Below, in pieces: positions 10,883 to 25,239 of a stretch of DNA of 64,000 nt. This stretch comes from Bifidobacterium asteroides (GTDB taxonomy: Bacteria > Actinomycetota > Actinomycetes > Actinomycetales > Bifidobacteriaceae). The DNA lies in contig NZ_CP132384.1 of NCBI RefSeq assembly GCF_030758775.1, forward strand, positions 1,922,001 through 1,986,000, in the 5' to 3' direction. A program made the translations under genes and the position numbers. The notes beneath the pieces are model-generated. The model did no database searches and was not told the origin of the DNA. It saw only the letters and a program-made list of their open reading frames with translations. The first letter of the stretch is position 1, and each line of letters opens with the position of its first letter.

Positions 10883-12304
10883 TCATTCGCCAGTGTACTG
10901 TGCTATCACACCGGCAGGGGAACGACCTGCTGATTTGCGCACCGTGGCCCACGAAGCCAGTGATGCCGCCGAGGTCAGAAGCAGGTAGACCAGCGCCCAG
11001 TGAGCCCATGGTATGCCAATGCTGGCTGCGCCAAAGATCTTGCGAAACCCGGCAGCATAGGCCATGACGGGCAGGATGCTGGAGGTGAAGGATATCAATA
11101 CGGCGGTAGTTGCCATGATGAATCCCTCGAGAGCGGACATGATTTCAAGTTGGTTCGGGTCCGAGCCAGCAATCGAGATGAGGGACAGATCCAGGCTTCG
11201 ACCGTGGGCTGAGATCAGGTATCCGGCGCACACTCCAGCCAGCGTGACGACCAGCGCGGGACCCAGGAGCGTAATGAGCATGGAGAAATCAGAGCTGCTG
11301 ACATCCAGGTTGGGAGGCAGCAAGCGACTGGAATCGGCGCTGGTCTGGTAGAAGGAATCGGTCATCATCAGCAATGAAACCCCCACAATCAGCGGTATGA
11401 CTGTGGAGCTGAGGCTGCGCATGCGGGCACTGGCTTGCCGGCAAGCAACCAGCCATGAGGGCTGGCGAAGAGCGATGAGCCTGGTCCAACAGCTGGTGAC
11501 CGCGCCCAGCAGGGAGGGACCCGCCAAACAGATTGCGGCCAGCAGGAGCATGAAACCGAAAGTGCTGCCCATGGCGATAGGCAGGATGGGTGCCGCGGTG
11601 TGCAAACGAACCAGTTGCTCATCAGGAATGGTCCGCGCTTGCATAATCGGCATCAGCATGACTGTCGATGCTGCCAACAAACACAAGGCAGTGGCGATAC
11701 GACGAGCCAAACCTGCTGTTTTTGGAGGAATGATTGCAGCACGCAGGGATTCCACCGGACTGATTCTGCTGATGGTCCGGATGGTCAGCAGCGTGCCGAT
11801 CAAGGCTACCAATACTCCGCATGAGGTTCCTGCTGTCCAGCAAGCCAGCTGGTGGCTGGCGATGAAAGGCTGCCTGCCGATCAGGAACTGTGAGGTCTCC
11901 CAGGCATAAAGGGGACGGGCCAGCAGAAAAGAGACCGCCAGCGAGACCACACTGGCTGCGAGCGCCAAAACGAGCACGCGCATACAGGTCAGAGAGGTCA
12001 GTTGCCAGGGAGATGCGCCTTGCAGGGACAGGAGGGCAAGGTTACGTCTGCGCTGGTTGATCACCGACGAAACGACTTGTAGAACGATCAATACTGCGGC
12101 AATGAGAAGAGCCACGAAAGGGATCATCAAATTTTGGTAGGCAGTGCGGCCTTGCTCGGCCATGCCGGGGAGATCGCCCAGGGCATTGGCTGAAGAAAGC
12201 ATCATGGCAAGCAGGCCGACCATGGTTTGCGATGCGATCAGCACGAGCACGACGCCAGACCAAGCCAAGGGAGCATCCTTGAAATCTCGCAGAAGAAGTC
12301 GCAT
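10883..12304 (-). CDS. FtsX-type ABC transporter permease
   Basis: 473 aa membrane protein of the FtsX/MacB-permease family, acting with the ATPase encoded just upstream. It starts MRLLLRDFKDAPLAWSGVVL, with its ATG overlapping the ATPase stop (TGATG). About eight to ten hydrophobic segments surround the typical RRRNLALLSLQGASPWQLTSL stretch of the FtsX domain. The same architecture and several motifs recur in the permease at 23809-25239, so the two are paralogous. Such transporters in front of a two-component system usually give resistance to peptide antibiotics or export peptides; that role is inferred. Confidence 0.9.
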   Translation of the reverse strand: MRLLLRDFKDAPLAWSGVVLVLIASQTMVGLLAMMLSSANALGDLPGMAEQGRTAYQNLMIPFVALLIAAVLIVLQVVSSVINQRRRNLALLSLQGASPWQLTSLTCMRVLVLALAASVVSLAVSFLLARPLYAWETSQFLIGRQPFIASHQLACWTAGTSCGVLVALIGTLLTIRTISRISPVESLRAAIIPPKTAGLARRIATALCLLAASTVMLMPIMQARTIPDEQLVRLHTAAPILPIAMGSTFGFMLLLAAICLAGPSLLGAVTSCWTRLIALRQPSWLVACRQASARMRSLSSTVIPLIVGVSLLMMTDSFYQTSADSSRLLPPNLDVSSSDFSMLITLLGPALVVTLAGVCAGYLISAHGRSLDLSLISIAGSDPNQLEIMSALEGFIMATTAVLISFTSSILPVMAYAAGFRKIFGAASIGIPWAHWALVYLLLTSAASLASWATVRKSAGRSPAGVIAQYTGE

Positions 12305-13041
12305 CAGATGCCCGCTTTCGGCACAGGAACCTTGTCGGCTGTGGCTATGCGACCGTCGCACAGATGCACCAGAGTGTTGCAGCGTGAGGCGACTTCCGGA
12401 CTGTGGGTGACCATAATCACTGCGTGGCCCGGTCGATCGGCAAAGGCGACGAGCTCATTGACGACCTCATTGCCAGTCTCCTGGTCAAGGGCGCCAGTAG
12501 GCTCATCGGCGAAGATGATATCGGGATCCGAAAGCAGCGCGCGGGCCAGAGCCACACGTTGCTGCTCGCCCCCTGACAGGAGGGTCACATTGGCCTTGAG
12601 TAGCCCCCTGATGCCGAGTCTGTCCAGCAGCACGGCCGCCTGATCCTCCGGCCAGCGGGTCTTGCGCAGAATGAAGGGCAGCTTGAGGTTATCCTCCACG
12701 CTCATCGAAGGCACCAGATTATAGGACTGGAAAACGAAGCCCAGGTGCGCACGCCGGAATCGCGCTGACGCCGCAGGCCCCATGGCAGAGATGCGCCGAC
12801 CCAGAACTTCCACCTGGCCCGAGCTGACGGGTTCGAGACCAGCCAGGCAGTAGAGCAGGGTTGATTTACCGCTACCCGATGGCCCTACAATCCCGGTCAT
12901 GACTCTCCAAGATGCAGTGAATTCCACATTGTCCAGGAGAGTGATGGTCTCCCCTTTCCTAGGCGACACCTGCTTGCACAGGCCGGATGCATAGATAGCG
13001 AAGGGCTCGCTCAGGTCGGGAGGATTGGCGGTACGCTTCAT
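12304..13041 (-). CDS. ABC transporter ATP-binding protein (MacB/LolD-like)
   Basis: 245 aa from the ATG at 13041; a TTG at 13062 could add seven residues. Walker A GPSGSGKST, Q-loop GFVFQSYNLVPSMSVEDNL, ABC signature LSGGEQQRVALARALL, Walker B IIFADEPTGALD and H-loop VTHSPEVA are all intact. It is translationally coupled to the permease gene. It is a paralogue of the interrupted ATPase at 23111-23812 and shows what the intact signature of that gene should look like. Confidence 0.93.
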   Translation of the reverse strand: MKRTANPPDLSEPFAIYASGLCKQVSPRKGETITLLDNVEFTASWRVMTGIVGPSGSGKSTLLYCLAGLEPVSSGQVEVLGRRISAMGPAASARFRRAHLGFVFQSYNLVPSMSVEDNLKLPFILRKTRWPEDQAAVLLDRLGIRGLLKANVTLLSGGEQQRVALARALLSDPDIIFADEPTGALDQETGNEVVNELVAFADRPGHAVIMVTHSPEVASRCNTLVHLCDGRIATADKVPVPKAGI

Positions 13042-13538
13042 GGCAGTATCCAGTGCTCGCAAACGGGTGAATGCCAGTATGAGCCTTTGCCGCTCTGTAC
13101 ATGCGGCGATGCGTATTGAGCCGGATGTTTCATCGGAGCTCCCTCCCTCAGCACAGTTGCGAGGTCAATCGGACCGCCTCGCAGGGATGATTCTTTCAAT
13201 CCGAGTACGGGGAATCAACGTCGGCCGCCACTTCGCCATCTGCAGATGGCAAAACAGAGCCACACTCACTGCGCAACTGATAGGAAGCCGCACTACGCTC
13301 TGGCAGAAGCTTTTGACCGGCAGATTGGTTTACTGTCCGGCACGGATCCCGTCGGCAGGTTCAGAGTTTGCCCCCCCTCTCTCCCACGCATCTCAACAAC
13401 ATTCTTAAGTGGGCGGAAAGGTAGCGTTTCAAGTTGATATTCTTCGTTGATCTGTACGGGTTCTCGGTCTTGCTTCGCCCGAGAACCGGCTTGCCGCGAA
13501 CTGGAAAAATCGAGAACAAACATGTAGTGTTGAGCTGT
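13042..13538. other. Intergenic region upstream of the ABC/two-component operon
   Basis: About 500 bp without a credible gene. It holds the promoter of the leftward operon and, just before the tRNA, a perfect 9-bp inverted repeat GGTTCTCGG / CCGAGAACC at 13459-13487 with an 11-nt loop. No T-run follows the repeat, so it is not a classical terminator. Confidence 0.5.
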
Positions 13539-13611
13539 TGCCCCTCTGGCTCAATGGTTAGAGCAGCGTCCTTTTAAGTCGTGGGTTGTGGGTTCGAGTC
13601 CCACGGGGGGC
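13539..13611 (+). tRNA. tRNA-Lys (UUU anticodon)
   Basis: About 73 nt. The acceptor strands GCCCCTC and GGGGGGC pair with one wobble. The D-arm is GCTC-AATGGTTA-GAGC, the anticodon loop CTTTTAA reads UUU for lysine, and the T-arm is GTGGG-TTCGAGT-CCCAC. The anticodon stem GCGTC/GTCGT has a T-T mismatch at its fourth pair. CCA is not encoded. It sits exactly where the GC-rich sequence ends and the AT-rich island begins. Confidence 0.93.
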
Positions 13612-14638
13612 ACTTTGGATTGCTAGGAACACATGGCTTCCAAGATTCCGTCCGTGATCAATTCCACAATAAGTAAGGCAATTTTAAGAGTAAAGTAACT
13701 ATGAGTCGTACTTAAACAAATGTAGAGAACCGGGTGCAGCGGAAATCTGCATCCACTACTTGAAGCAGCCGTAAGACAACATCAAATAATTCGACACATC
13801 TCACTCCTTCTCATGAGTGGGAGAAAATCGGTACCGTAGTCAGAACATCTCAATGCAAGAGCAATCTGCTACATTGGTATGTGGCAGTTTTGCCAATACG
13901 AAAGCCGACGAAGATTTCACACAAGAGTTTATATAATGCTACTAATGTATAGATTGTACATTTTCCCCAGATGATTGCCTAAATACTCGAAAAGTACCGT
14001 GTAATCGCAGGTACCATAGGTCTTGGCCAAGCCTGGGGCATGCAAAACTCAACGCGTTGAAATACTTGTATTCCCATCATCTATCACGCTGTAGTGCCAT
14101 GACATGCAACGCTATCGAGTCGATATGACATACGACACCGCCTTGCCTTCACATTTTTGGTTAACGACATACGTTCATACCTGATGCCTTTTGTGATTTC
14201 CCCAAGTTGACGGTATTGTTCCTGATCCTGGCAAAGCCCAATATCTCATCATCACAAAATCCTATTCTCACACTAAAGCTAAAACGCTAATACAAGCGTT
14301 CAAATGAACTAATTAAAGAAAAATAAACTCCCCTTTATCTCAACTGCATCAAGCAATACGTTATCTATTAGTTTCTCGTATCTGCACAGCTACTGAATGC
14401 ACCACTGGCAATCTCCAGCATATTTTCAGGCCTGGTTGACAGAACAGTCCCTGAGCATGGAACACAACGCAGCATTAACGGCTTTCTTCACTTGGCATCT
14501 ATTCTTCATCGGAAGCAAAAGAAACCGCGCTCATGAATAAATAGCAATTTCTACGGAACAGAACATTGCTGATTTGCAACATAATGAGCCATCAATCCCC
14601 GCATGTCTTAAAATACCAGTGTACTAAGATGTAACATC
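13612..14638. other. AT-rich stretch without genes between tRNA-Lys and the ATPase/protease pair
   Basis: About 1 kb, markedly more AT-rich than sequence to the left of the tRNA. I see no open frame longer than a few dozen codons on either strand and no integrase remnant that I can recognise. It probably contains the promoter of the ATPase gene near its right end. No copy of the tRNA 3' end was found by eye. Confidence 0.5.
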
Positions 14639-15754
14639 GTGGAACACAATTCTGAGATTAAAAAAGAGATTGTCCAGCTGATCAAATTCGAGCTCAGTGA
14701 CAAGCCAAACGATTTTCGCATGTACGTGTCTAGGCTAGTGCGCAAGTACAGAGTTAGTGACGCGCCTTTCTCTAAAGAACTGGAATCACTGCTCCATTCC
14801 ACACCTATACCCGATGCAGCCGCTATTCGGGGTACCAGCCAAGGTATACACGCTCCAGAAAAATCACATATCCTTTCTGTAATTCCTCATTCCAATTTGG
14901 AAAATGAGAAGCCCTTATTACAAGAAAATGTCGACAAACAAATTAGGGAAATAATAGAAGAACGCGAAAAAGCTCACATACTCATTGACAACGGCTTAGT
15001 TCCAACTTCGACGGTGATTTTTACCGGTCCGCCCGGAGTCGGGAAGACGATGACTGCACGATGGATAGCGAGTCGCTTGGACTTACCAATGTATCGTCTA
15101 GATTTAGCTACGGCCATCAGTAGTCACCTCGGCGAGTCTGGCAGGAATATTAAGACAGCATTCTTGAGAGTTCGGAATAACCCTGGAATTCTTTTCCTAG
15201 ACGAAATTGATGCCATCGCTAAGACCCGGTCGGATGACTCAGATATCGGCGAGATTAAACGTGTAGTAACTGTACTATTGCAGGAGCTAGACGACAGAAG
15301 TCCAGCAAGCCTGATACTTGCAGCGACAAACAATGAGACACTCATCGATCCGGCGGTATGGCGGCGATTCGAAGTGCATATAAAGTTTCCTATGCCTGAC
15401 ATGACCAAAATCACACAATTACTTGAGGAAGGTCTAGGCTCATTCAGCGGTACTCTGGGAGATACGTCCGCCTCGTGGATCAAAGCTCTGGGCATCGTGA
15501 TGCAGGGAATGTCTTTTAGCGATGTAGCATCTACTATAAGTTATATCAAGAAAAGATGCATACTAGAAGAATGCACAATATTTGATGCCATTACCCAGTA
15601 TGTTCGAGACAAAACGAACACTCTGACTCACTCTCAGAGAATTAATCTAGCTACCGAACTTGTGAAAACTGGCTCAGTGACTCAGCGGCTCGCATGTGAG
15701 ATGACTGGAGTTTCGCGCCAGACAATCAGGCGCAGGACTAAAAAACAGGATTGA
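14639..15754 (+). CDS. AAA ATPase with C-terminal HTH, IetA-like partner of a subtilisin-like protease
   Basis: 371 aa from a GTG at 14639. An N-terminal helical part (residues 1-110, LIKFELSDKPNDFRMYVSRL) precedes an FtsH/proteasome-type AAA module: Walker A GPPGVGKT at 130-137, Walker B GILFLDEIDAIAKTR at 183-197, sensor-1 ATNN near 229-232 and arginine-finger pair WRRFE at 241-245. The last 25 residues (VTQRLACEMTGVSRQTIRRR) look like a helix-turn-helix. The TGA stop lies 11 bp before the protease ATG, so the genes are tightly linked. AAA ATPase plus S8 protease pairs are known as ietAS, first described as a plasmid incompatibility/toxin-antitoxin pair and later reported to act against phage. 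The island setting and low GC suggest horizontal transfer. Confidence 0.85.
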   Translation: MEHNSEIKKEIVQLIKFELSDKPNDFRMYVSRLVRKYRVSDAPFSKELESLLHSTPIPDAAAIRGTSQGIHAPEKSHILSVIPHSNLENEKPLLQENVDKQIREIIEEREKAHILIDNGLVPTSTVIFTGPPGVGKTMTARWIASRLDLPMYRLDLATAISSHLGESGRNIKTAFLRVRNNPGILFLDEIDAIAKTRSDDSDIGEIKRVVTVLLQELDDRSPASLILAATNNETLIDPAVWRRFEVHIKFPMPDMTKITQLLEEGLGSFSGTLGDTSASWIKALGIVMQGMSFSDVASTISYIKKRCILEECTIFDAITQYVRDKTNTLTHSQRINLATELVKTGSVTQRLACEMTGVSRQTIRRRTKKQD

Positions 15755-15765
15755 AGGGGCATTCT

Positions 15766-17979
15766 ATGGGCATACACTATTTAATAGGACACGGTGAGCG
15801 TATATCTGAACCGATAGTTCTTCCTCACGGAGGTAAAACCCCTGAAGACATCTATTCCTATGAAGAATCACGCCAACGACTGCAACCAGAATTACACGAA
15901 GCAATTAACAATCTACCCCAGAATCCGGATCTCGCACCAGATGACGTACATGTCTTACAGTTCATCCTGCATCCAAGATACTTAGCGAAGTCCTATCATC
16001 CTTCTGCGCTACTTAGCGCAGCTGGCTTATCCTTGGTCGGCAGCAAACCTATACGGATTAATACGTCCGATAATCCCGAGATTGGCCAGCGCCTATCCAA
16101 GACACTGCTAGTGGCGGGAAATAGACATTCGCTAGAACACCTAGACTCACTACTGCAGGAACCTGTAATTCCGCCGAATAGGAATACCGGAATTGGCGAT
16201 ATTGTTAAAATTGAGCAAATAGACAACTATAGATTCGAGGACAAGTACCACGATGCGCCACATCATAACGAATGGTATGAGCTAGTACTCCACCAATTAG
16301 ACGAAAACCTATCTCCAAATAATATCCAAGGCTTTTTAGCTTTCGCAGAGAAGCTCGGAGTAAACGTAGAAGAAGATGTGAACTTCCAATCCAACAATCT
16401 ATTGTATCTGCCAGTTCATGGTTCGGACAAAGCCGTTAAACAACTCGCTGAATACACCAGTGTCCGTGCCTTACGTCCTATGCCCAGGTTGGAACTTGAG
16501 CCCATCGTAGGCGCTACAAGAAGTGTAATAAAACCTATTAAGCTTCCAGAACCTCCAGATACACCAGCACAGCTGAACGTCGCAGTCCTCGACGGAGGCT
16601 TACCACCAGACAACCCCATAATGCCGTGGGTAAACTACATCAAAGCAAATCCTACTGCAAATGATGATCCAAGAACTCTCGCCCATGGGCTTGGGGTGTG
16701 CTCAGCACTAGTGTTCGGCAATCTTGCAACCGATCAACAACCTTTGCGCACACGGATAACAGCAGTAAGGGTGCTTGATTCGGAAACAATGTATGACGAC
16801 CCAATTGGATTATACAAAACACTCTACAATATAGAAAGCGTGCTGGAATCTTACCCTTTCCAATACGTCAATTTGAGCCTTGGTCCAGACTTACCAATCG
16901 AAGATGACGATGTTAGCGCTTGGACATCAGTTCTAGATGCACTCCTGTCCTCCAGGGAAATGCTACTCAGCGTGGCGGTTGGAAACAACGGAGCAATGGA
17001 CGGAGAGAGTGGCAACAACCGCATCGAACCGCCAAGCGATGCAGTCAATGCGTTAGGCGTTGGGGCATGCGATTCTGAAAGCGGATATTGGAAGAGGGCC
17101 CCCTACTCAGCTGTAGGCCCAGGACGCAGCCCAGGTATCGTCAAGCCCGACCTTGTAGCGTTCGGAGGAGCAGAAGGCAACGAGTTCATGGTACTCGGTG
17201 CTGAATCGTCACCAATAGAGACACCAGTCATGGGAACGAGTTTTGCAGCTCCGATCGCGTTACGGCAGGCCATCCGCATACGTGAAATCTGCGGTCCTGA
17301 AATTACCCCACTTGTAGCGAAAACTCTGCTAATTCATTCCGCAGAGCGCCGTAGAGACGACGATCAGCGTGAAGTTGGCTGGGGCAAAGTCCCGACTGAT
17401 GCCACTGAAATCGTTACTACCTCAGATAACCGTGCCCTTATTATTTATAATGGAAGAATCAAACCAGGGAAAATAGTGCGTGCAACTATACCCGTCCCCA
17501 GGCATCTTAATGATGGCAACATGGAAATTGCTGCCACTTTCTCTTTCATCAGCAAGGTAGACCCTCAATCACCAGATTCATATACGCGCTCTGCACTTGA
17601 GGTCATATTCAGACGTAATGCAGACAGCATCGACCAAGGAAGAAGAACACCGAAAAGCACGCCTTTCTTTAGTGCCAAAGGAACATCTAGCCTATATTCC
17701 ACAGAGGCCGAGCAACGGTCAGATCAGGGAAAGTGGGAGACAGTGCTACATGCAGAGAAGCGGTTTAGAGCCTCTAGTCTGGTCAAACCAGTGTTTGACA
17801 TCCACTACAATGCCCGCGAAGAAGGTGGCGGAACCCGCACACAAGATGAGTTGGAATATGCACTGGCGATTACTCTATTCGCTCAAGGTATCAGAAATTT
17901 ACCTCAAATAATATTGAATGAATATCCCCAGTTGGTCTCGCTTGAACCCATAATTGATGTGTCTGGAGGGATGGCCTGA
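15766..17979 (+). CDS. Subtilisin-like serine protease (S8 family), IetS-like
   Basis: 737 aa from the ATG at 15766, which has GAAGGGG just upstream; an in-frame TTG at 15751 overlaps the ATPase stop and is less likely. No signal peptide is seen, so it should act in the cytoplasm. The S8 catalytic triad is clear: Asp276 in VAVLDGGLP, His307 in LAHGLGVCSAL and Ser492 in MGTSFAAPIAL; the oxyanion Asn is probably in VAVGNNGAMDG. A 270-residue N-terminal region and a 200-residue C-terminal region with a beta-sandwich look flank the protease domain. Neither resembles a classical propeptide. Together with the upstream AAA ATPase it forms the IetAS-like pair, in which the protease would be the effector. 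Confidence 0.87.
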   Translation: MGIHYLIGHGERISEPIVLPHGGKTPEDIYSYEESRQRLQPELHEAINNLPQNPDLAPDDVHVLQFILHPRYLAKSYHPSALLSAAGLSLVGSKPIRINTSDNPEIGQRLSKTLLVAGNRHSLEHLDSLLQEPVIPPNRNTGIGDIVKIEQIDNYRFEDKYHDAPHHNEWYELVLHQLDENLSPNNIQGFLAFAEKLGVNVEEDVNFQSNNLLYLPVHGSDKAVKQLAEYTSVRALRPMPRLELEPIVGATRSVIKPIKLPEPPDTPAQLNVAVLDGGLPPDNPIMPWVNYIKANPTANDDPRTLAHGLGVCSALVFGNLATDQQPLRTRITAVRVLDSETMYDDPIGLYKTLYNIESVLESYPFQYVNLSLGPDLPIEDDDVSAWTSVLDALLSSREMLLSVAVGNNGAMDGESGNNRIEPPSDAVNALGVGACDSESGYWKRAPYSAVGPGRSPGIVKPDLVAFGGAEGNEFMVLGAESSPIETPVMGTSFAAPIALRQAIRIREICGPEITPLVAKTLLIHSAERRRDDDQREVGWGKVPTDATEIVTTSDNRALIIYNGRIKPGKIVRATIPVPRHLNDGNMEIAATFSFISKVDPQSPDSYTRSALEVIFRRNADSIDQGRRTPKSTPFFSAKGTSSLYSTEAEQRSDQGKWETVLHAEKRFRASSLVKPVFDIHYNAREEGGGTRTQDELEYALAITLFAQGIRNLPQIILNEYPQLVSLEPIIDVSGGMA

Positions 17980-19155
17980 TGCGCCCAACTAGCCAGCGAA
18001 ATACAAACTGCCAACTTATTATAGAAATTCTCCAATTGCACTGGGGCTCTCCGCCGCACTTGCGTTATTTTAAAGCCATGATTGGCTTCGCCGACAAGTT
18101 TTATAAATCACGTTTTAAGCTTATCTGTCACTAAGTCCTATATACGAGGCACTGAAAAACCCATACTTAAGAAATAGGCGTGGCCTTTCTAAATAATTAC
18201 TACGCATTCCGGCGATATCCAACAACGTAGGTTCGTCTTACTTGGCATCGTTGAAACCCTAACCAAGCGGATGAACGACTCCGATATAAGTGGAAAAGGC
18301 AATAAAAGCCTACTCGCCCAACGAGTCGACTTATTAAACTTCTCGCGATACAATATTTTTCATCTTAGAGGTAATCTACGGAATGACCTATTTGCCCACA
18401 TTCTCCCAGCTCAATCTAGACTAGCTTTGATAATTCTTCAATTAGACTCAAACAAAGTCAACTGGAATTAAACTCAGCTTGCTGTTATGGCAACATTTTG
18501 ATCTTCGACCGAAGTCAACCTCAGCAGAATATCCTTACTTTCCTGAAGAACTAAAATTCAATCTAAAAATGCTACCTTCCCCGCATTCTATTTTGGGAAG
18601 TTGCAACCCACGATTTCTGTCGTGTCCGTAGGTAGTTCTGGTTTTGGGTTTTGTGCAAAACTTGATAGTTTTGAATAGAGGATTGGACCGCTATATATGG
18701 TTTCGCTAACAACAAGCTAGAGTATTTCGTAATTATTTACGGATAATCCTATGGTCGGCAGATAGGGGAGACAAACATACCTGGGATTATCACATCATTA
18801 AACCGAGGATGACCATACACCAATGCATTTGAGGCATATTACGATAGGCTGGTAAAAAATGTAGTCATAGCTGTTCTGGCCAGGAAGCCAAGCGGCAGCG
18901 TGTCAAACTAGTGTTAGTACTATTATCAGAAAGAATTTGTCCGATCTGAAGCTCTAATAAAACACAAAGCTTGCTTTTTAGCACCAATATGACAAAACAT
19001 CCATTGCATGCTGTTGCTCATCGTTCCCCATATTTGCCAGTATGCGGATAAGCGGGGACAGGTGCAGAAACAGGTTCGAGCCTCAACTGAGACCATAGGA
19101 GGCAATCCCGATGCGGTAATGTCCAGACCAATCACCGCATCAGGAAGAAGCCAGG
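17980..19155. other. Gene-poor AT-rich tail of the island
   Basis: About 1.2 kb between the protease stop and the 3' end of the P-type ATPase. A 66-codon open frame at 18271-18471 has no ribosome binding site, atypical composition and no recognisable motif, so I do not call it. GC content returns to the local norm at about 18880-19150, which I take as the right edge of the island. No terminator or att-like repeat was recognised. Confidence 0.5.
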
Positions 19156-22100
19156 TTATGCCCGCAGCCGTCTGACCGCCCAGTTGAACAGTTTGCGCAG
19201 CTCCGAGGCGACGAGGACCAGGGAGGCCAGGGCGATGCACTCCAGCCAGGCCTGGGGCTGGAGGGGGACGGTGCCGAAGGCCTCGCCCAGGAAGGGCACG
19301 TAGATCACCAGGAGCTGCAGCAGGATGGAGATGCCGATGGCGCCCCAGAGCCAGGGGTTGCCGAAGAGCCCTTGGAAGGCCGACTTGCGGGAGGAGCGGG
19401 AGGCCAGCGCATTGAAGAGCTGGGCGAAGACCAGGATGGTGAAGCCCATGGTCCGCGCCTCCCTGATCTGCGCCTCGTGGCCGATCGCTTGGACTGACCT
19501 GTCGGTGAAGAGGCCGCCGCTCAGGTGCATGTCCATGCCGATCAGGGTGACCGCAGCCATGACCAGGCCAATGTAGATGATGTCAACCCACATGTCCCGG
19601 TCGATCACCCGGTCGTTGACGGAGCGGGGCGGGCGGTCCATCAGATCGTCGGTCTGCGGGTCCACGCCCATGGCCAGCGCGGGGGCCGCGTCGGTCAGGA
19701 GGTTGATCCAGAGCAGCTGGGTGGCCAGCAGCGGCACGGTCACGCCTGCCATGCCGGGCTGCGATATGCCCAGAAGACCGGCAAAGACCACGCCGCCGAA
19801 GACCGTGAAGACCTCGCCCATGTTGGAGCTGAGCAGGTAGCGCAGGAACTTACGGATGTTGTCGAAGATGCCCCGGCCCTCTCGCACAGCCTGGACGATA
19901 GTGGCGAAATTGTCGTCCGCCAGGATCATCTTGGCCGATTCCTTGGTGACCTCGGTCCCGGTGATGCCCATGGCCACGCCGATGTCCGCGGTCTTGACAG
20001 CAGGGGCATCGTTGACGCCGTCGCCGGTCATGGCCACGACCTTGCCCTGGTCCTGGAGCGATTCGACGATCTTCAGCTTGTGCTCGGGGGCCACGCGGGC
20101 GTAGACGGAGACCTTGGAGGTGGTCTCCCGAAGCTGGTCCGAGTCCATGGCATCCAGCTGCTCGCCGGTGCAGGCGGGCTGACCAGGCTTGATGATGCCC
20201 AGGTCCCCCGCGATTCTGGCTGCAGTGAGCGGATGGTCGCCGGTGATCATGATCGTTCTGATGCCGGCCTTATGGGCCTGGTCCACCGCATGACGGACCT
20301 CGGTTCGTGGCGGATCGATGATGCCGACCATGCCCGTCCAGATCAGGTTGCTCTCCAGCTGGGCGCTTTCCTGGATCACCTTATCCGCGGACAGAAGGAT
20401 TGCGGGAACATGCTGAGACCTCTGAGACAACCGGTCCGTCTGATCTGTCCCGACCGTGCTTGACGGTCTCTCCCCCTCGTCGGCTTCGGCCAGGGACGAC
20501 AGCTCCCGGTCGGATACAGGCCGGAAAGCCTGCCCCAGAGTCCTGTAGGCATCCGCCGAGAGGCTGCTGACCTGGGCAAGTATCCTCTCCCGATCAGCAC
20601 TGGTCATAGGCCTGGCCTGGCCGCCTTCGAGAATCCGGTCGCATCGGCCAAGCAGCACATCGGGAGCGCCCTTGCAGAAGAGGCGCGATTGCCCTTCGCT
20701 GCCATCACGCGGAGCGGCCAGGACCGACATGAGCTTGCGCTCGGATGTGAAGGGAATCTCGGCCAGACGACGATAGCCATCAGCCTTGGCATCGGCACCG
20801 ACTTTACGGGCGGCGACAATGAGCGAGACCTCCGTAGGATCACCGACGATCTGCCAGTGACCCTGTCCGGAGCCGGACCGGGCCTGGGAATCAGGTTCGG
20901 CCTCGTCCACCTGCCAATGAAGGTCTCCGTCGTTGGCGATGGTCCCGACCATCAGGGTCTCTGCAACCGCACTAGCCAATGACGAGTCAACGGCGTCCGT
21001 CGGCTGCTGGTCGTCGGAACCTCCGGCCTCGATCTGCTGCATGGTTCCCTCCGGGGCATACCCGGTGCCAGTGAGCCGGACCTGCCCCGAGGGGACGACC
21101 ACCCGCTCAACGGTCATCTCATTGCGGGTCAGCGTCCCCGTCTTATCAGAGCAGGTGACCGATGCCGAACCCAGCGTCTCAACCGAGCTGAGCTTCTTGA
21201 CGATGGCATGATGCTTGGCCATGCGCTGCACGCCCAGGGCGAGAACCACAGTCAGGATGGCCGTCAGCCCCTCCGGCACAGCAGCTACGGCCAGAGATAC
21301 GGCCATGAGCAGGGAATCAATCAGATCCTGGGTTGTCTGAAAGCCTTCCATCAGGGCCAAAGCAGCCAAAACCAGGGCGGCAATCAAGCAGACGGCCAGT
21401 CCGAGGAGCTTGGAGACGCGGGCCATCTCCTTCTGTAGGGGCGTGGGTTCCTCCTGGGTATCAGCCAGCATGTCGGCGATCTTCCCGACCTGGGTGTCCA
21501 TACCAGTAGAGGTGACGATCATGCGCCCGTTCCCCTGGGTCACTGCGGTGCCGTTGAAGACCATGTTGGTTCTGTCACCCAGAGCCTTGGGCTGGTCAAG
21601 CCGACCGGGCCGCTTGCCCACCGGCAGCGACTCGCCGGTCAGCGATGCCTCGGCCACGCGCAGACCCGCGGCCTGGAACAGTCTTCCGTCGGCGCCGACC
21701 GAATCGCCTTCAGCCAGGACTACTACATCACCAGGCACGATCCTGCTGGTCTCCAGGCTGACCACCCGGCCGCATCGCAGCACCGAGGCGTGCGGGGCCG
21801 TCATGCTCGCCAGAGCATCCACAGCCCGCTCGGCCTTAGCCTCCTGAGCGTACCCCAGGGCGGCATTAAGGATGAGGATGATCATGATGACGATGGCATC
21901 AAAGGGCAGGGGCTCCCCGCCTCCTGATGCCGGATGTGAGCGTTCCACCACCCAGGGCACCAACGAAATGGCCGTGGCTGCCAGAAGCAGATAGACCAAG
22001 GGGTCCTTGAACTGTTGAAGGAATTCCCTCCATGCAGGAACGGGAGGCGCTCCAGCCAGCTCATTAGGACCGAACCTGTCCAGCCGACGCGCCGCCTCGG

Positions 22101-22287
22101 CCTCATCCAGGCCCCGGTCGGGGTCCACATTCAGAGCAAGGGCAACCTGATCGACACCTACTATAGAAGGGTCCTTGAGGACGGGGCCATTCACTCTGCG
22201 CCTCTGCTCATGGCCCTGCCCTGCAGTCGGGATCACGCCGGTATCTGTCGATTTCTCATGCTTGGGATCGCTGGTCAACCCAGTCAT
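19156..22287 (-). CDS. Cation-transporting P-type ATPase (P2 type, Ca2+-ATPase-like)
   Basis: 1043 aa membrane pump that uses ATP to move a cation, most like the P2A calcium/manganese group. The start at 22287 (MTGLTSDPKHEK) has CAGGAGAG upstream; the frame is open to 22491 but that part is promoter. The N-terminal cation-ATPase domain is EAEAARRLDRFGPNELAG. The phosphorylation motif is CSDKTGTLTRNEMT, the hinge VVAMTGDGVNDAPAVKTADIGVAMG, and TGES lies in the actuator domain (ASLTGESLPVG). Membrane segment 4 contains AAVPEGL. Membrane segments near the C-terminus include LLWINLLTDAAPALAMG. The nucleotide-binding domain has hydrophilic insertions at about 480-520 and 640-690. Confidence 0.95.
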   Translation of the reverse strand: MTGLTSDPKHEKSTDTGVIPTAGQGHEQRRRVNGPVLKDPSIVGVDQVALALNVDPDRGLDEAEAARRLDRFGPNELAGAPPVPAWREFLQQFKDPLVYLLLAATAISLVPWVVERSHPASGGGEPLPFDAIVIMIILILNAALGYAQEAKAERAVDALASMTAPHASVLRCGRVVSLETSRIVPGDVVVLAEGDSVGADGRLFQAAGLRVAEASLTGESLPVGKRPGRLDQPKALGDRTNMVFNGTAVTQGNGRMIVTSTGMDTQVGKIADMLADTQEEPTPLQKEMARVSKLLGLAVCLIAALVLAALALMEGFQTTQDLIDSLLMAVSLAVAAVPEGLTAILTVVLALGVQRMAKHHAIVKKLSSVETLGSASVTCSDKTGTLTRNEMTVERVVVPSGQVRLTGTGYAPEGTMQQIEAGGSDDQQPTDAVDSSLASAVAETLMVGTIANDGDLHWQVDEAEPDSQARSGSGQGHWQIVGDPTEVSLIVAARKVGADAKADGYRRLAEIPFTSERKLMSVLAAPRDGSEGQSRLFCKGAPDVLLGRCDRILEGGQARPMTSADRERILAQVSSLSADAYRTLGQAFRPVSDRELSSLAEADEGERPSSTVGTDQTDRLSQRSQHVPAILLSADKVIQESAQLESNLIWTGMVGIIDPPRTEVRHAVDQAHKAGIRTIMITGDHPLTAARIAGDLGIIKPGQPACTGEQLDAMDSDQLRETTSKVSVYARVAPEHKLKIVESLQDQGKVVAMTGDGVNDAPAVKTADIGVAMGITGTEVTKESAKMILADDNFATIVQAVREGRGIFDNIRKFLRYLLSSNMGEVFTVFGGVVFAGLLGISQPGMAGVTVPLLATQLLWINLLTDAAPALAMGVDPQTDDLMDRPPRSVNDRVIDRDMWVDIIYIGLVMAAVTLIGMDMHLSGGLFTDRSVQAIGHEAQIREARTMGFTILVFAQLFNALASRSSRKSAFQGLFGNPWLWGAIGISILLQLLVIYVPFLGEAFGTVPLQPQAWLECIALASLVLVASELRKLFNWAVRRLRA

Positions 22288-22307
22288 GCCACTCTCCTGC
22301 TTATGCC

Positions 22308-22438
22308 ACGGAGTAGTCAACGCTTCAGAGGCCCGTTGGAAGAAATCAGAGGCGGCCAGACCAAAACGCTGCGTGGATGCTTGCCAAGTTGAACCAATAA
22401 TATACATAAACACGGCCGAAGTCGTCAAGGCCTTTGCT
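22308..22438. repeat. 131-bp direct repeat, copy 1
   Basis: Matches 27424-27554 in the same orientation and without gaps, with 13 differences by my count (about 90% identity). It contains the P-type ATPase promoter. The two copies enclose the peptide/ABC locus. Confidence 0.9.
22399..22428 (-). promoter_or_regulatory. Promoter of the P-type ATPase gene
   Basis: On the minus strand TTGACG (22428-22423), an 18-bp spacer and TATATT (22404-22399) make a good sigma-70-type promoter about 110 bp before the start codon. It lies inside direct-repeat copy 1, and the same elements are kept in copy 2. Confidence 0.6.
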
Positions 22439-22792
22439 TCAGTATGCATTCTCAGGCCTGTCTCATGACAGAGACGGTATCTTTGCTGCACTTAACTTGG
22501 CAGCGCCCTAGTTGCCGAATCCCCCCCCCCAAAAAAAATACTAGATCTTCATTAGAAAAGCTTTAATCAATTTGGGCTCATCTGGCATAAAAACCCTTAT
22601 CTGCCCTGAGAATCCTATTTAAGACCCTCTTGTGATTATTCGACAGGCTCAGCTGGCGTTATCTGAGCAGTAAATAGTCTTATAGGCCAACCATGGTAGT
22701 TCTTGCCAGCCGTCTGCCCTAACGATCCTTTCAGTGGAGACACCATTGGAAATAGCACTAAACACGAGAAAGAGAGGAGAGAGACGGACAAA
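22439..22792. other. Leader region of the peptide/ABC locus with a C10A8 tract
   Basis: About 350 bp with no gene. It has ten Cs followed by eight As at 22521-22538, a slippage-prone tract about 120 bp upstream of the P-type ATPase -10 element and 255 bp upstream of the 39-codon peptide gene. The promoter of the rightward peptide gene should lie here, but I cannot place it with confidence. Confidence 0.5.
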
Positions 22793-23110: not shown

Positions 23111-23812
23111 ATGAGTGGTGCTTCAGTGAGTTCAAATGGATTGACAATGACGGTGACTCCGAGGAAGGATGATTCGATCACCATCCTCGACCATGTCGAC
23201 TTCCATGCTGAGCCCGGAAGAATCACGGGGATTGTCGGCCCCTCAGGCAGCGGAAAGTCCACCTTGCTGTACTGCCTTTCGGGGTTGGAACGTGCGACAT
23301 CCGGAAGCATCTCCCTTCTAGGGCATGACATCACACATATGCGAGCGTCCGCGCTCACTCGGTTTCGGCGTCGACATCTGGGATTCGTGTTTCAATCCTA
23401 CAACCTGATCACGAGCATGACGGTGGAGGAGAACCTCGCGCTGCCATTCACCCTGCGCGGCCGTCGACTCCCCAAGCAAAAAGCGGATGAGATGTTGCGG
23501 TACTTCGGATTGGCAAACGAGAAAAAAAGGAGCGTGACGATGCTCTCAGGCGGAGAGTAGCAACGTGTCGCGCTTGCACGAGTGCTGCTCTCCGATGCAG
23601 ATATCATTTTCGCCGACGAGCCGACTGGAGCCTTGGATCAGGAATCTGGCGCCAAGGTCATGCAGGTGTTCAAAAGCCTGGCTATGGATGCGGGCAGGAC
23701 CGTAGTAATAGTGACCCACAGTGGAGAGGTAGCCGGACAGTGCGACCAGATCGTTGAGGTCCGTGATGGCCACGTGCTGAACGCTGATACGGAGAGCGGG
23801 GCCCGCATATGA
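23111..23812 (+). pseudogene. ABC transporter ATP-binding protein interrupted by an amber codon
   Basis: From the ATG at 23111 (GGGAG upstream) the frame encodes a MacB/LolD-like ATPase with Walker A GPSGSGKST and Q-loop GFVFQSYNLITSMTVEENL. A TAG at 23558-23560 then falls in the ABC signature: LSGGE-stop-QRVALARVLL. The intact paralogue at 12304-13041 has LSGGEQQRVALAR, so a single C-to-T change of CAG explains the stop. The frame continues open with Walker B IIFADEPTGALD and H-loop VTHSGEVA to TGA at 23810-23812, overlapping the permease ATG. Everything else is preserved, so the mutation is recent, suppressed, or a sequencing error. Confidence 0.85.
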
Positions 23813-25239
23813 GGGGCGCACTCTCTGATCTGAAAGCAGCCCCGGCCGTATGGGCCGGCGTATGGCTGTCACTAATCGTTTCCCAGACCGCTGTGTGCAC
23901 TATCGTCGCCGCGCGCAGGGCTATTGATGCCGCTTACCACGGACCGGATGCCGGGTTAGGCGCCAACCTTTCCGGCCCAGCAATGCTGTTCAGCGTGGTC
24001 ATAGCCGTGTTCGTGATGCTGTGGGTCGTGACCGCCGCTCTGAACCAGCGCAGGCACCAACTAGCATTGCTGGTCCTTCAAGGCGCCACGCCCTGGCAGC
24101 TGCTCTTCGGGAATCTGGCTATCATCATCGTCCTATTCATCTTGGCAGCAGTAGCGTCATCCCTCCTGACGCCGCTGGCAGCACCATATCTGTTCGACCT
24201 CCTGGCCAGAGCATTCGAGCTGAAACTGACGTATCAAGCAACCCAGCTGCTGGCATCCATCGGCACTGGGTTGGCCATTGCCGGAGTCGCCGTCCTTGCA
24301 GGCACAGTGCTGACCGTGCGCACACTATCCAAGATCAGGCCGATAGAGGCGCTTCGGCAGTCACAAAACCCGCCGAGACAAGTGAACGCATTCCGTGTTC
24401 TGCTAGGCGCATCGTTGCTCGTGGGAGCGATATGCGCGCTCATCATCCCGGGGACAGCTACACGCAAGATAGACTCTGGCGAGCTCGCCACGCACATTTC
24501 CGGCAGGAATCCCATAGAGTCCAGAGTGACAGGATTCATTGGGTTCTCCATGGGAGGCATGTTCCTCCTGATCTTCGCATTGGCTGTTCTGGCTCCCTAT
24601 GTCATGCACTGGTTCACCAAAGGATGGACGCATCTTCTCCCCCTGCCATTCAGCACCTGGAAACTCGCTAGGCAGCAGGCCGTTGGGAGGATCCAACGAC
24701 AGAACGCGACCATCATTCCCATGACGGCCGGCTTGTCGTTGCTCATGACTTTCTCTGGTGTGTTGCATACGCTGACCGACAGCCTCAAGAATTTCGCCAG
24801 TAACGGCCATTCCATGAACGTGAACCCACACATGCTGACGAACCTGATGGCCATGCTCGGCCCTGCGCTCATCATCGCTTTGGTGGGCGCAATCTCCGGA
24901 CTGATGATCACCGCACGAGGGCGACGCCTGGATCTGGCGCTGACATACGTATCCGGTGCCAGTACCGGACAGTTGCGCATTTTGGGAGCCCTCGATGGTC
25001 TCATTTCGATGGTCACCTCGGTGCTGCTCGCCTTCGTCATCACACTGCTCAGCACCTGCGGCACCGCCTTCATGCTGCAACGATATCTGGGAAGCGCAAA
25101 GATAAGCGTTCAATGGGGATATTGGGCGGTCATCGCACTCCTCGCTATTGTCGTAGGCGCCCTCGTCACAGGCGTGCAGGCGCTGTGCGCGCGTTCCGAG
25201 GATTCTGTGAGGGTCATATCACGTGCAGTCGGTGAGTAA
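23809..25239 (+). CDS. FtsX-type ABC transporter permease
   Basis: 476 aa, intact. It starts MRGALSDLKAAPAVWAGVWL at an ATG that overlaps the ATPase stop (ATGA). About ten hydrophobic segments and the FtsX-domain stretch RRHQLALLVLQGATPWQLL are visible. It closely parallels the permease at 10883-12304 (same order of helices, similar N-terminus and C-terminal end). Its natural ATPase partner is interrupted, so the transporter may be non-functional unless another ATPase such as the 12304-13041 product substitutes. It is part of the repeat-bounded peptide locus. Confidence 0.88.
   Translation: MRGALSDLKAAPAVWAGVWLSLIVSQTAVCTIVAARRAIDAAYHGPDAGLGANLSGPAMLFSVVIAVFVMLWVVTAALNQRRHQLALLVLQGATPWQLLFGNLAIIIVLFILAAVASSLLTPLAAPYLFDLLARAFELKLTYQATQLLASIGTGLAIAGVAVLAGTVLTVRTLSKIRPIEALRQSQNPPRQVNAFRVLLGASLLVGAICALIIPGTATRKIDSGELATHISGRNPIESRVTGFIGFSMGGMFLLIFALAVLAPYVMHWFTKGWTHLLPLPFSTWKLARQQAVGRIQRQNATIIPMTAGLSLLMTFSGVLHTLTDSLKNFASNGHSMNVNPHMLTNLMAMLGPALIIALVGAISGLMITARGRRLDLALTYVSGASTGQLRILGALDGLISMVTSVLLAFVITLLSTCGTAFMLQRYLGSAKISVQWGYWAVIALLAIVVGALVTGVQALCARSEDSVRVISRAVGE

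What the first reader, a model, noticed from the sequence alone, without database searches (positions are those of the whole stretch)
14639..17979. IetAS-like ATPase/protease pair in an AT-rich island
Seen: an FtsH/proteasome-type AAA ATPase gene tightly linked to a cytoplasmic S8 protease gene with an intact Asp276/His307/Ser492 triad and no secretion signal, isolated between a tRNA-Lys and a P-type ATPase in sequence clearly richer in A+T than its surroundings. Known: ietAS pairs of AAA ATPase and subtilisin-like protease act in plasmid exclusion and have been reported as an anti-phage system. Inferred: this is a defence or plasmid-exclusion cassette acquired by transfer in a Bifidobacterium, where such systems are little described.
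Basis: partly seen in the sequence, partly recalled or inferred. Interest (0 to 1): 0.78.

Follow-up and report, generated by a model that had tools for sequence, protein, structure and literature searches.

The report
Protease toxin pair in defence hotspot
A gut-type bacterium of the Bifidobacterium family carries a known kind of two-gene anti-invader system, a protease and the ATPase thought to restrain it, at a chromosome spot where several relatives keep other defence genes; the system is ordinary in kind, but its swap into the site can be read clearly.

Summary
An AAA ATPase (14639-15754) and a subtilisin-family protease (15766-17979) form a tight two-gene unit with intact catalytic residues. 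Their best, nearly full-length PADLOC hits are IetA and IetS, but both score below NCBI's equivalog cut-offs: a divergent member of the known IetAS family. Relatives fix the insert at 13622-18980, between the 3' end of tRNA-Lys and the first 17 codons of a helicase gene whose remainder is missing here. In 8 relatives with both edges fetched the site holds other cargo; in 6 of the 8 it includes known or candidate defence genes. The closest ietAS lies beside conjugation genes in Bifidobacterium kashiwanohense, in a 23-kb block 99% identical to a second species. A same-genus copy beside phage-type genes is more distant, so the pair has moved between lineages. By homology with published pairs IetS is a protease toxin and IetA its antitoxin; phage or plasmid exclusion here is inferred, not tested. 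New member of a known kind. The conserved HTH-like tail of IetA is the best loose end.

The parts
13540..13613 (+). tRNA-Lys (TTT), left edge of the swapping site
   Evidence: ARAGORN; conserved in the bounded relatives
13622..18980 (.). insert not shared with the compared relatives, 44.8% GC
   Evidence: homology to relatives stops at 13616-13621 and resumes at 18981 in 8 of the fetched loci; sequence at both joints; GC
14639..15754 (+). ietA: AAA ATPase, proposed antitoxin, with an HTH-like C-terminal stretch (residues about 329-367)
   Evidence: PADLOC IetA 3.1e-75; Pfam AAA 1.9e-30; motifs; C-terminal conservation
15766..17979 (+). ietS: cytoplasmic S8 protease, proposed toxin (open frame begins 15751)
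   Evidence: PADLOC IetS 4.8e-57; Peptidase_S8 2.7e-17; triad; start codon judged
18981..19031 (-). remnant: first 17 codons of the helicase gene found whole or split at this place in 8 relatives
   Evidence: MGNDEQQHAMDVLSYWC then a stop; the 51 bases equal those of G014, G021 and G005; 8 relatives
19156..22491 (-). P-type cation ATPase, right conserved flank
   Evidence: ORF; 89-96% identical protein in 14 other same-genus genomes
12304..13062 (-). ABC transporter ATPase, left conserved flank
   Evidence: ORF; 88-94% identical protein in 7 other same-genus genomes

Best explanation
This is a divergent bifidobacterial IetAS module, swapped into a tRNA-Lys defence hotspot where relatives have a helicase gene. 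IetA and IetS are probably made from one transcript (inferred from spacing). In the resting cell the ATPase IetA binds or remodels the protease IetS and keeps it inactive. When a phage or an incoming plasmid or conjugative element disturbs that balance, IetS is freed in the cytoplasm and cuts cell proteins, stopping growth before the invader can spread. Shown here: membership by profile, intact catalytic residues, purifying selection, the breakpoints, and movement between lineages. Inferred from homologues: the toxin/antitoxin roles. Inferred more weakly: the anti-phage or anti-plasmid purpose and its trigger in this organism.
For: Nearly full-length PADLOC hits for both genes. An IetS match lies downstream of IetA in 76 of 80 loci found with IetA; 3 of the 4 misses end at a contig edge. 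Other cargo at the site in 8 bounded relatives, 6 with known or candidate defence genes. Helicase remnant at the joint. Closest copy beside conjugation genes, in about 23 kb that is 99% identical between two species while aligned flanks are mostly 88-92% (one 963-base piece 95%). IetS relatives on plasmids (27 records) and phages (11 records); all 6 records that I opened have an ATPase gene upstream. In SGI1 a related pair acts as antitoxin (ATPase) and toxin (protease) in E. coli (passages of PMC5006074); a mycoplasma ATPase/subtilisin pair does likewise (passages of PMC8562856).
Against: NCBIfam equivalog cut-offs for the anti-phage IetA/IetS are not met. No ORF of 100 aa or more besides the pair and ORFs overlapping it lies wholly in the insert, so there is no whole integrase or relaxase gene, and no clear att repeat. 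No promoter-like site was found upstream of ietA on the + strand; the region had 7 such sites in all against 9.6 in shuffles. Two of the 8 bounded relatives (G001, G003) carry mainly transport or sugar genes at the site, judged by eye and mostly unscanned. SGI1's pair gave no post-segregational killing from its own promoter.
Confidence: 0.72

Rival explanations
1. A selfish toxin-antitoxin addiction module only: it stabilises whatever DNA carries it and has no real defence role in this chromosome.
For: The pTiC58 pair is described as governing plasmid stability and incompatibility (title of Yamamoto 2009 in reference lists and a review passage; the 2009 paper itself was not held). RelB/YafQ genes were identified in G011, with RelB homologues at the site in G003, G014 and G021. 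IetS relatives occur on plasmids, phages and beside conjugation genes.
Against: 6 of 8 bounded relatives hold known or candidate defence cargo at the site. IetAS is listed among anti-phage systems activated by phage replication proteins (one passage of PMC10732053).
Confidence: 0.3
2. A housekeeping protein-quality-control pair: the ATPase unfolds and feeds damaged proteins to the cytoplasmic protease.
For: IetA's core resembles Cdc48/p97 and proteasomal ATPases.
Against: IetS in 2 of 27 same-genus genomes, own included; foreign composition and a variable site; the protease is toxic alone in homologues.
Confidence: 0.05
3. A decaying relic with no present function.
For: About 1 kb on each side of the pair has no match in the fetched loci; the helicase beside it is reduced to 17 codons.
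Against: Both frames are full length, catalytic residues intact, third-position divergence far above first and second.
Confidence: 0.08

Closest known systems
IetAS (PADLOC IetA PDLC02196, IetS PDLC02197; NCBIfam NF042959/NF042956)
   Same: Gene order, lengths, domains, catalytic residues, nearly full-length profile matches
   Different: Scores below the NCBIfam equivalog cut-offs; separate bifidobacterial clade among 75 IetS rows
ietAS of B. kashiwanohense JCM 15439 (L005/G122) and G162
   Same: 65% (IetA) and 73% (IetS) identical, same order
   Different: Lies beside conjugation-type genes (TraG P-loop, PrgI, TrbL, SLT/CHAP); no such genes in the window insert
SGI1 sgiAT (S026-S025)
   Same: ATPase antitoxin upstream of subtilisin-type protease toxin (passages of PMC5006074)
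   Different: On a mobilisable resistance island; sequence not compared here
Mycoplasma TA132/3
   Same: Chromosomal AAA ATPase antitoxin and S8 toxin (passages of PMC8562856)
   Different: Sequence not compared here

Membership tests
IetAS (broad family, PADLOC) | Adjacent AAA ATPase (first) and S8 protease (second) | tested here: met
IetAS (broad family, PADLOC) | Near full-length profile match of both proteins | tested here: met
   IetA residues 8-370 on 4-371/374; IetS 38-709 (742-aa numbering) on 36-714/749
IetAS (broad family, PADLOC) | Intact ATPase and protease residues, no membrane span or secretion signal | tested here: met
   (hydropathy only; no dedicated signal-peptide program)
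NCBIfam equivalogs IteA/IteS anti-phage | Score above the curated cut-off | tested here: not met
   203.8 of 510 bits and 157.6 of 900 bits, although both are the top hits
IetAS toxin-antitoxin system | IetS toxic alone, IetA neutralises | not testable with these tools
   reported for homologues in papers only
IetAS anti-phage / plasmid-exclusion system | Lowers plaque formation or plasmid establishment | not testable with these tools
   context only: defence-type genes at the site in relatives
FtsH-type membrane protease | N-terminal membrane span and zinc protease domain in the ATPase | tested here: not met
   no hydrophobic stretch; only the AAA domain passes Pfam's cut-off
Secreted subtilisin | Signal peptide | tested here: not met
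   no hydrophobic N-terminus by hydropathy

The most novel reading that the evidence does not exclude
IetA is not just an inhibitor but a DNA-binding AAA regulator. It ends in a helix-turn-helix-like stretch whose key residues (G-V-S-R-x-T-I-R) are as conserved as the ATPase motifs, which would place the toxin's keeper on its own operator or on invader DNA. Protease release could then be triggered by events at DNA, such as replication or titration by operator copies carried on an incoming element, explaining in one stroke plasmid incompatibility, phage sensing and autoregulation.
Probability: 0.3. Interest if true: 0.6.

Novelty: new member of a known kind. Interest (0 to 1): 0.4.

Why it matters
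It places a protease-toxin defence pair in a bifidobacterial lineage and shows a swap with a 17-codon scar of the previous occupant, at a tRNA-Lys site whose cargo differs between species. The site gives a list of candidate barriers to phages and to transformation in these bacteria. The conserved C-terminal motif of IetA suggests a direct test of how IetAS senses invaders; one 2025 paper still says its mechanism is not fully elucidated (passage of PMC12755874).

Tried and rejected
Site-specific integration with att repeats: no long direct repeat joins the two edges; only the few bases GCAC recur at both joints, not enough to claim. A tyrosine-recombinase fragment that I read by eye in G001 got no Pfam match and was dropped. 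Decayed genes in the two 1-kb flanks: no tblastx, blastn or tblastn match to 138 fetched loci or to hotspot proteins (a first run had protein rows in its database and was repeated). RNA genes other than the tRNA: one sub-threshold match on the tRNA's other strand, not credible. An operator in the window: none found. A dyad scan of 48 upstream regions found no palindrome above the shuffled level (top palindrome 5; top of any dyad in shuffles 6-7), but several non-palindromic dyads at 10-14 of 48; the top one probably reflects the coding start, since 20 coding bases were included, and others led. Hotspot ORFs without PADLOC hits are not claimed as working systems.

I considered calling the organism a honey-bee Bifidobacterium of the asteroides group. 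Two contig lengths (G023, G026) fit my recollection of B. indicum and B. coryneforme, but this is recalled, not tested.

Full report
What is there. Two genes on the + strand, 14639-15754 and 15766-17979, 11 nt apart with a Shine-Dalgarno-like GAAGGGG before the second. The first is an AAA ATPase (Pfam AAA 1.9e-30), the second a subtilase (Peptidase_S8 2.7e-17). Against PADLOC the best hits are IetA (3.1e-75, residues 8-370) and IetS (4.8e-57), both nearly full length. Against NCBIfam the best hits are the anti-phage IetA and IetS models, but at 203.8 of 510 and 157.6 of 900 bits. So the pair belongs to the broad family and not to NCBI's narrow equivalogs. The triad Asp276/His307/Ser492 and Asn407 are present and at least 97% conserved in 75 IetS proteins; 17 of the 92 loci given to that script gave no complete IetS and were left out.

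Is it a unit? Of 80 loci found with IetA in bacterial genomes (the best 80 of 279), 76 have an IetS match downstream; the misses are L010, L046, L060 and L084, the last three cut by a contig end. Several of the 76 IetS matches are partial. Between complete genes the median spacing is -4 nt, range -20 to 1508; the largest fits L137, where an insertion sequence separates the two.

Where it sits. The genome has one IetS match. Blasting the window region on 18 fetched stretches of relatives shows homology ending at 13616-13621, just after tRNA-Lys, and resuming at 18981 in 8 stretches. The 51 bases 18981-19031, read on the - strand, are the first 17 codons (MGNDEQQHAMDVLSYWC) of a 1278-codon helicase gene that starts with this motif in 8 relatives: 5 near full length (G005, G011, G014, G021, G025) and 3 split (G010, G013, G017). 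A stop follows directly in the window. So the ietAS-bearing DNA replaced that gene, or its remainder was lost.

The site. In 8 relatives both tRNA-Lys and the P-type ATPase lie in the fetched stretches (G001, G003, G005, G010, G013, G014, G021, G025). None of them has an IetS match anywhere at E 0.001. Six hold known or candidate defence genes. G021: AbiH. G025: SIR2-HerA; G013: the same pair at 94-97% identity, plus HEC-06/GmrSD_N, PIN_8, a DUF4062 protein and AbiH in pieces. G010: AIPR and an ATPase 55% identical to the PifA/KAP-like protein scanned from G017. G005: a DUF6932/PDC-M63A protein. G014: a helicase 72% identical to the scanned one, and a RelB homologue. The scanned helicase (G021) has a partial MkoC hit of 6.8e-59. 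G001 and G003 hold mainly transport or sugar genes by eye, G003 also a RelB homologue. G011, G017 and G020 carry a NucC-like DUF6602 protein, a PifA/KAP protein and type I restriction genes on the same side of the P-type ATPase, but their left edge was not fetched and they are not counted. Not every ORF was scanned: 20 relatives' ORFs went to PADLOC and 20 to Pfam, many shared; several had no hit.

History. A tree of 75 IetS proteins puts the five bifidobacterial rows in one clade (SH-aLRT 100; two rows are identical). Within it the window groups with B. kashiwanohense and G162 (100), not with G026 of its own genus (quick method, and the program warned that long branches, G026 with G190 among them, may join falsely). 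B. kashiwanohense and G162 share about 23 kb at 99% identity around ietAS, while aligned flanks are mostly 88-92%, with one 963-base piece at 95%. Beside the B. kashiwanohense pair lie TraG-P-loop, PrgI, TrbL and SLT/CHAP proteins. In G026 the pair lies beside phage-type replication, recombination and repressor genes. In G190 it lies near tRNA-Phe and tRNA-Asp. IetS-model hits occur in 19 of 189 family genomes and 22 of 396 drawn from the phylum, own genome included; the model also rang in 3 of 14 control genomes, so these counts include distant relatives. I infer that the pair moves by several vehicles and that the window copy was acquired.

How it probably works. In SGI1 the protease is toxic in E. 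coli and the ATPase protects (passages of PMC5006074); the same is reported for a mycoplasma pair (passages of PMC8562856). PMC10732053 lists IetAS among systems activated by phage replication proteins (one passage). From these I infer that IetA holds IetS in check and that infection frees it. The direct test in this organism is missing.

The HTH-like tail. In 92 IetA proteins residues 325-367 align without gaps, and G357, S359, R360, T362, I363 and R364 (window numbering) are each kept in 97-100%, while many positions between vary. Pfam gives only a sub-threshold HTH_24 match (E 0.057), so the fold is inferred. Upstream of ietA, 18 of 48 dereplicated regions carry AGTCC (17 of the 18 as TAGTCC) at -52/-53 from the start chosen by my script. 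Any GGACT/AGTCC occurred in 26 of 48 against 16.5 expected from base shuffles. The 18 are related by descent, and none of the four bifidobacterial regions has the site. G190 has a 10-base perfect inverted repeat with a GACTA core. The window shows nothing comparable. This is a lead, not a result.

Literature. 23 papers hold the term ietAS, some of them false hits; only one of these also holds bifidobacteri, and it is about Streptococcus suis (PMC12813430, listing only). Searches for IetS with IetA, PADLOC or DefenseFinder with bifidobacteri and B. asteroides with phage or defence terms gave, by their listings, no paper on ietAS in bifidobacteria; of those listed I opened only PMC5006074, by passages. 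This covers open-licence PMC text only. IetAS at genomic-island hotspots is known in Pseudomonas (passages of PMC12629846), and it is reported in 54% of Propionibacterium freudenreichii strains (passages of PMC12755874). So neither the family nor the hotspot idea is new.

Verdict. A real, intact, transferred IetAS pair; a new member of a known kind, with a well-resolved swap site.

Noticed in passing
L085-L094 (same-genus relatives), site between tRNA-Lys and P-type ATPase: Cargo at this site differs from genome to genome: SIR2-HerA, AbiH, AIPR, GmrSD_N, a KAP/PifA-like homologue, RelB homologues, a large MkoC-like helicase, or sugar/ABC genes.
   Followed up: partly
L124 and L127 (G122 B. kashiwanohense, G162): A block of about 23 kb, 99% identical between two species, carries conjugation-type genes, ietAS and, by eye, a large surface-protein gene.
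   Followed up: partly
L102:5545-10933 (G026): ietAS sits after a phage-type repressor and a metallopeptidase gene, with phage-type replication genes further left: it looks like prophage cargo.
   Followed up: partly
Upstream of ietA in proteobacterial loci, e.g. L006, L018, L034, L042: TAGTCC-like element at -52/-53 in 18 of 48 regions; L027 and L042 also carry an inverted copy: a candidate IetA operator.
   Followed up: partly
L129 upstream of ietA: 10-base perfect inverted repeat AAAATGACTA/TAGTCATTTT with a GACTA core.
   Followed up: no
window 10883-13062 and about 23123-25239: Two related ABC ATPase plus FtsX-like permease sets (ATPases 56% identical) lie on either side of the P-type ATPase (permeases judged by eye).
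   Followed up: no
L092/L093, L089/L090, L097: The 1278-aa helicase gene is split into two frames in 3 of the 8 relatives in which I saw it.
   Followed up: no
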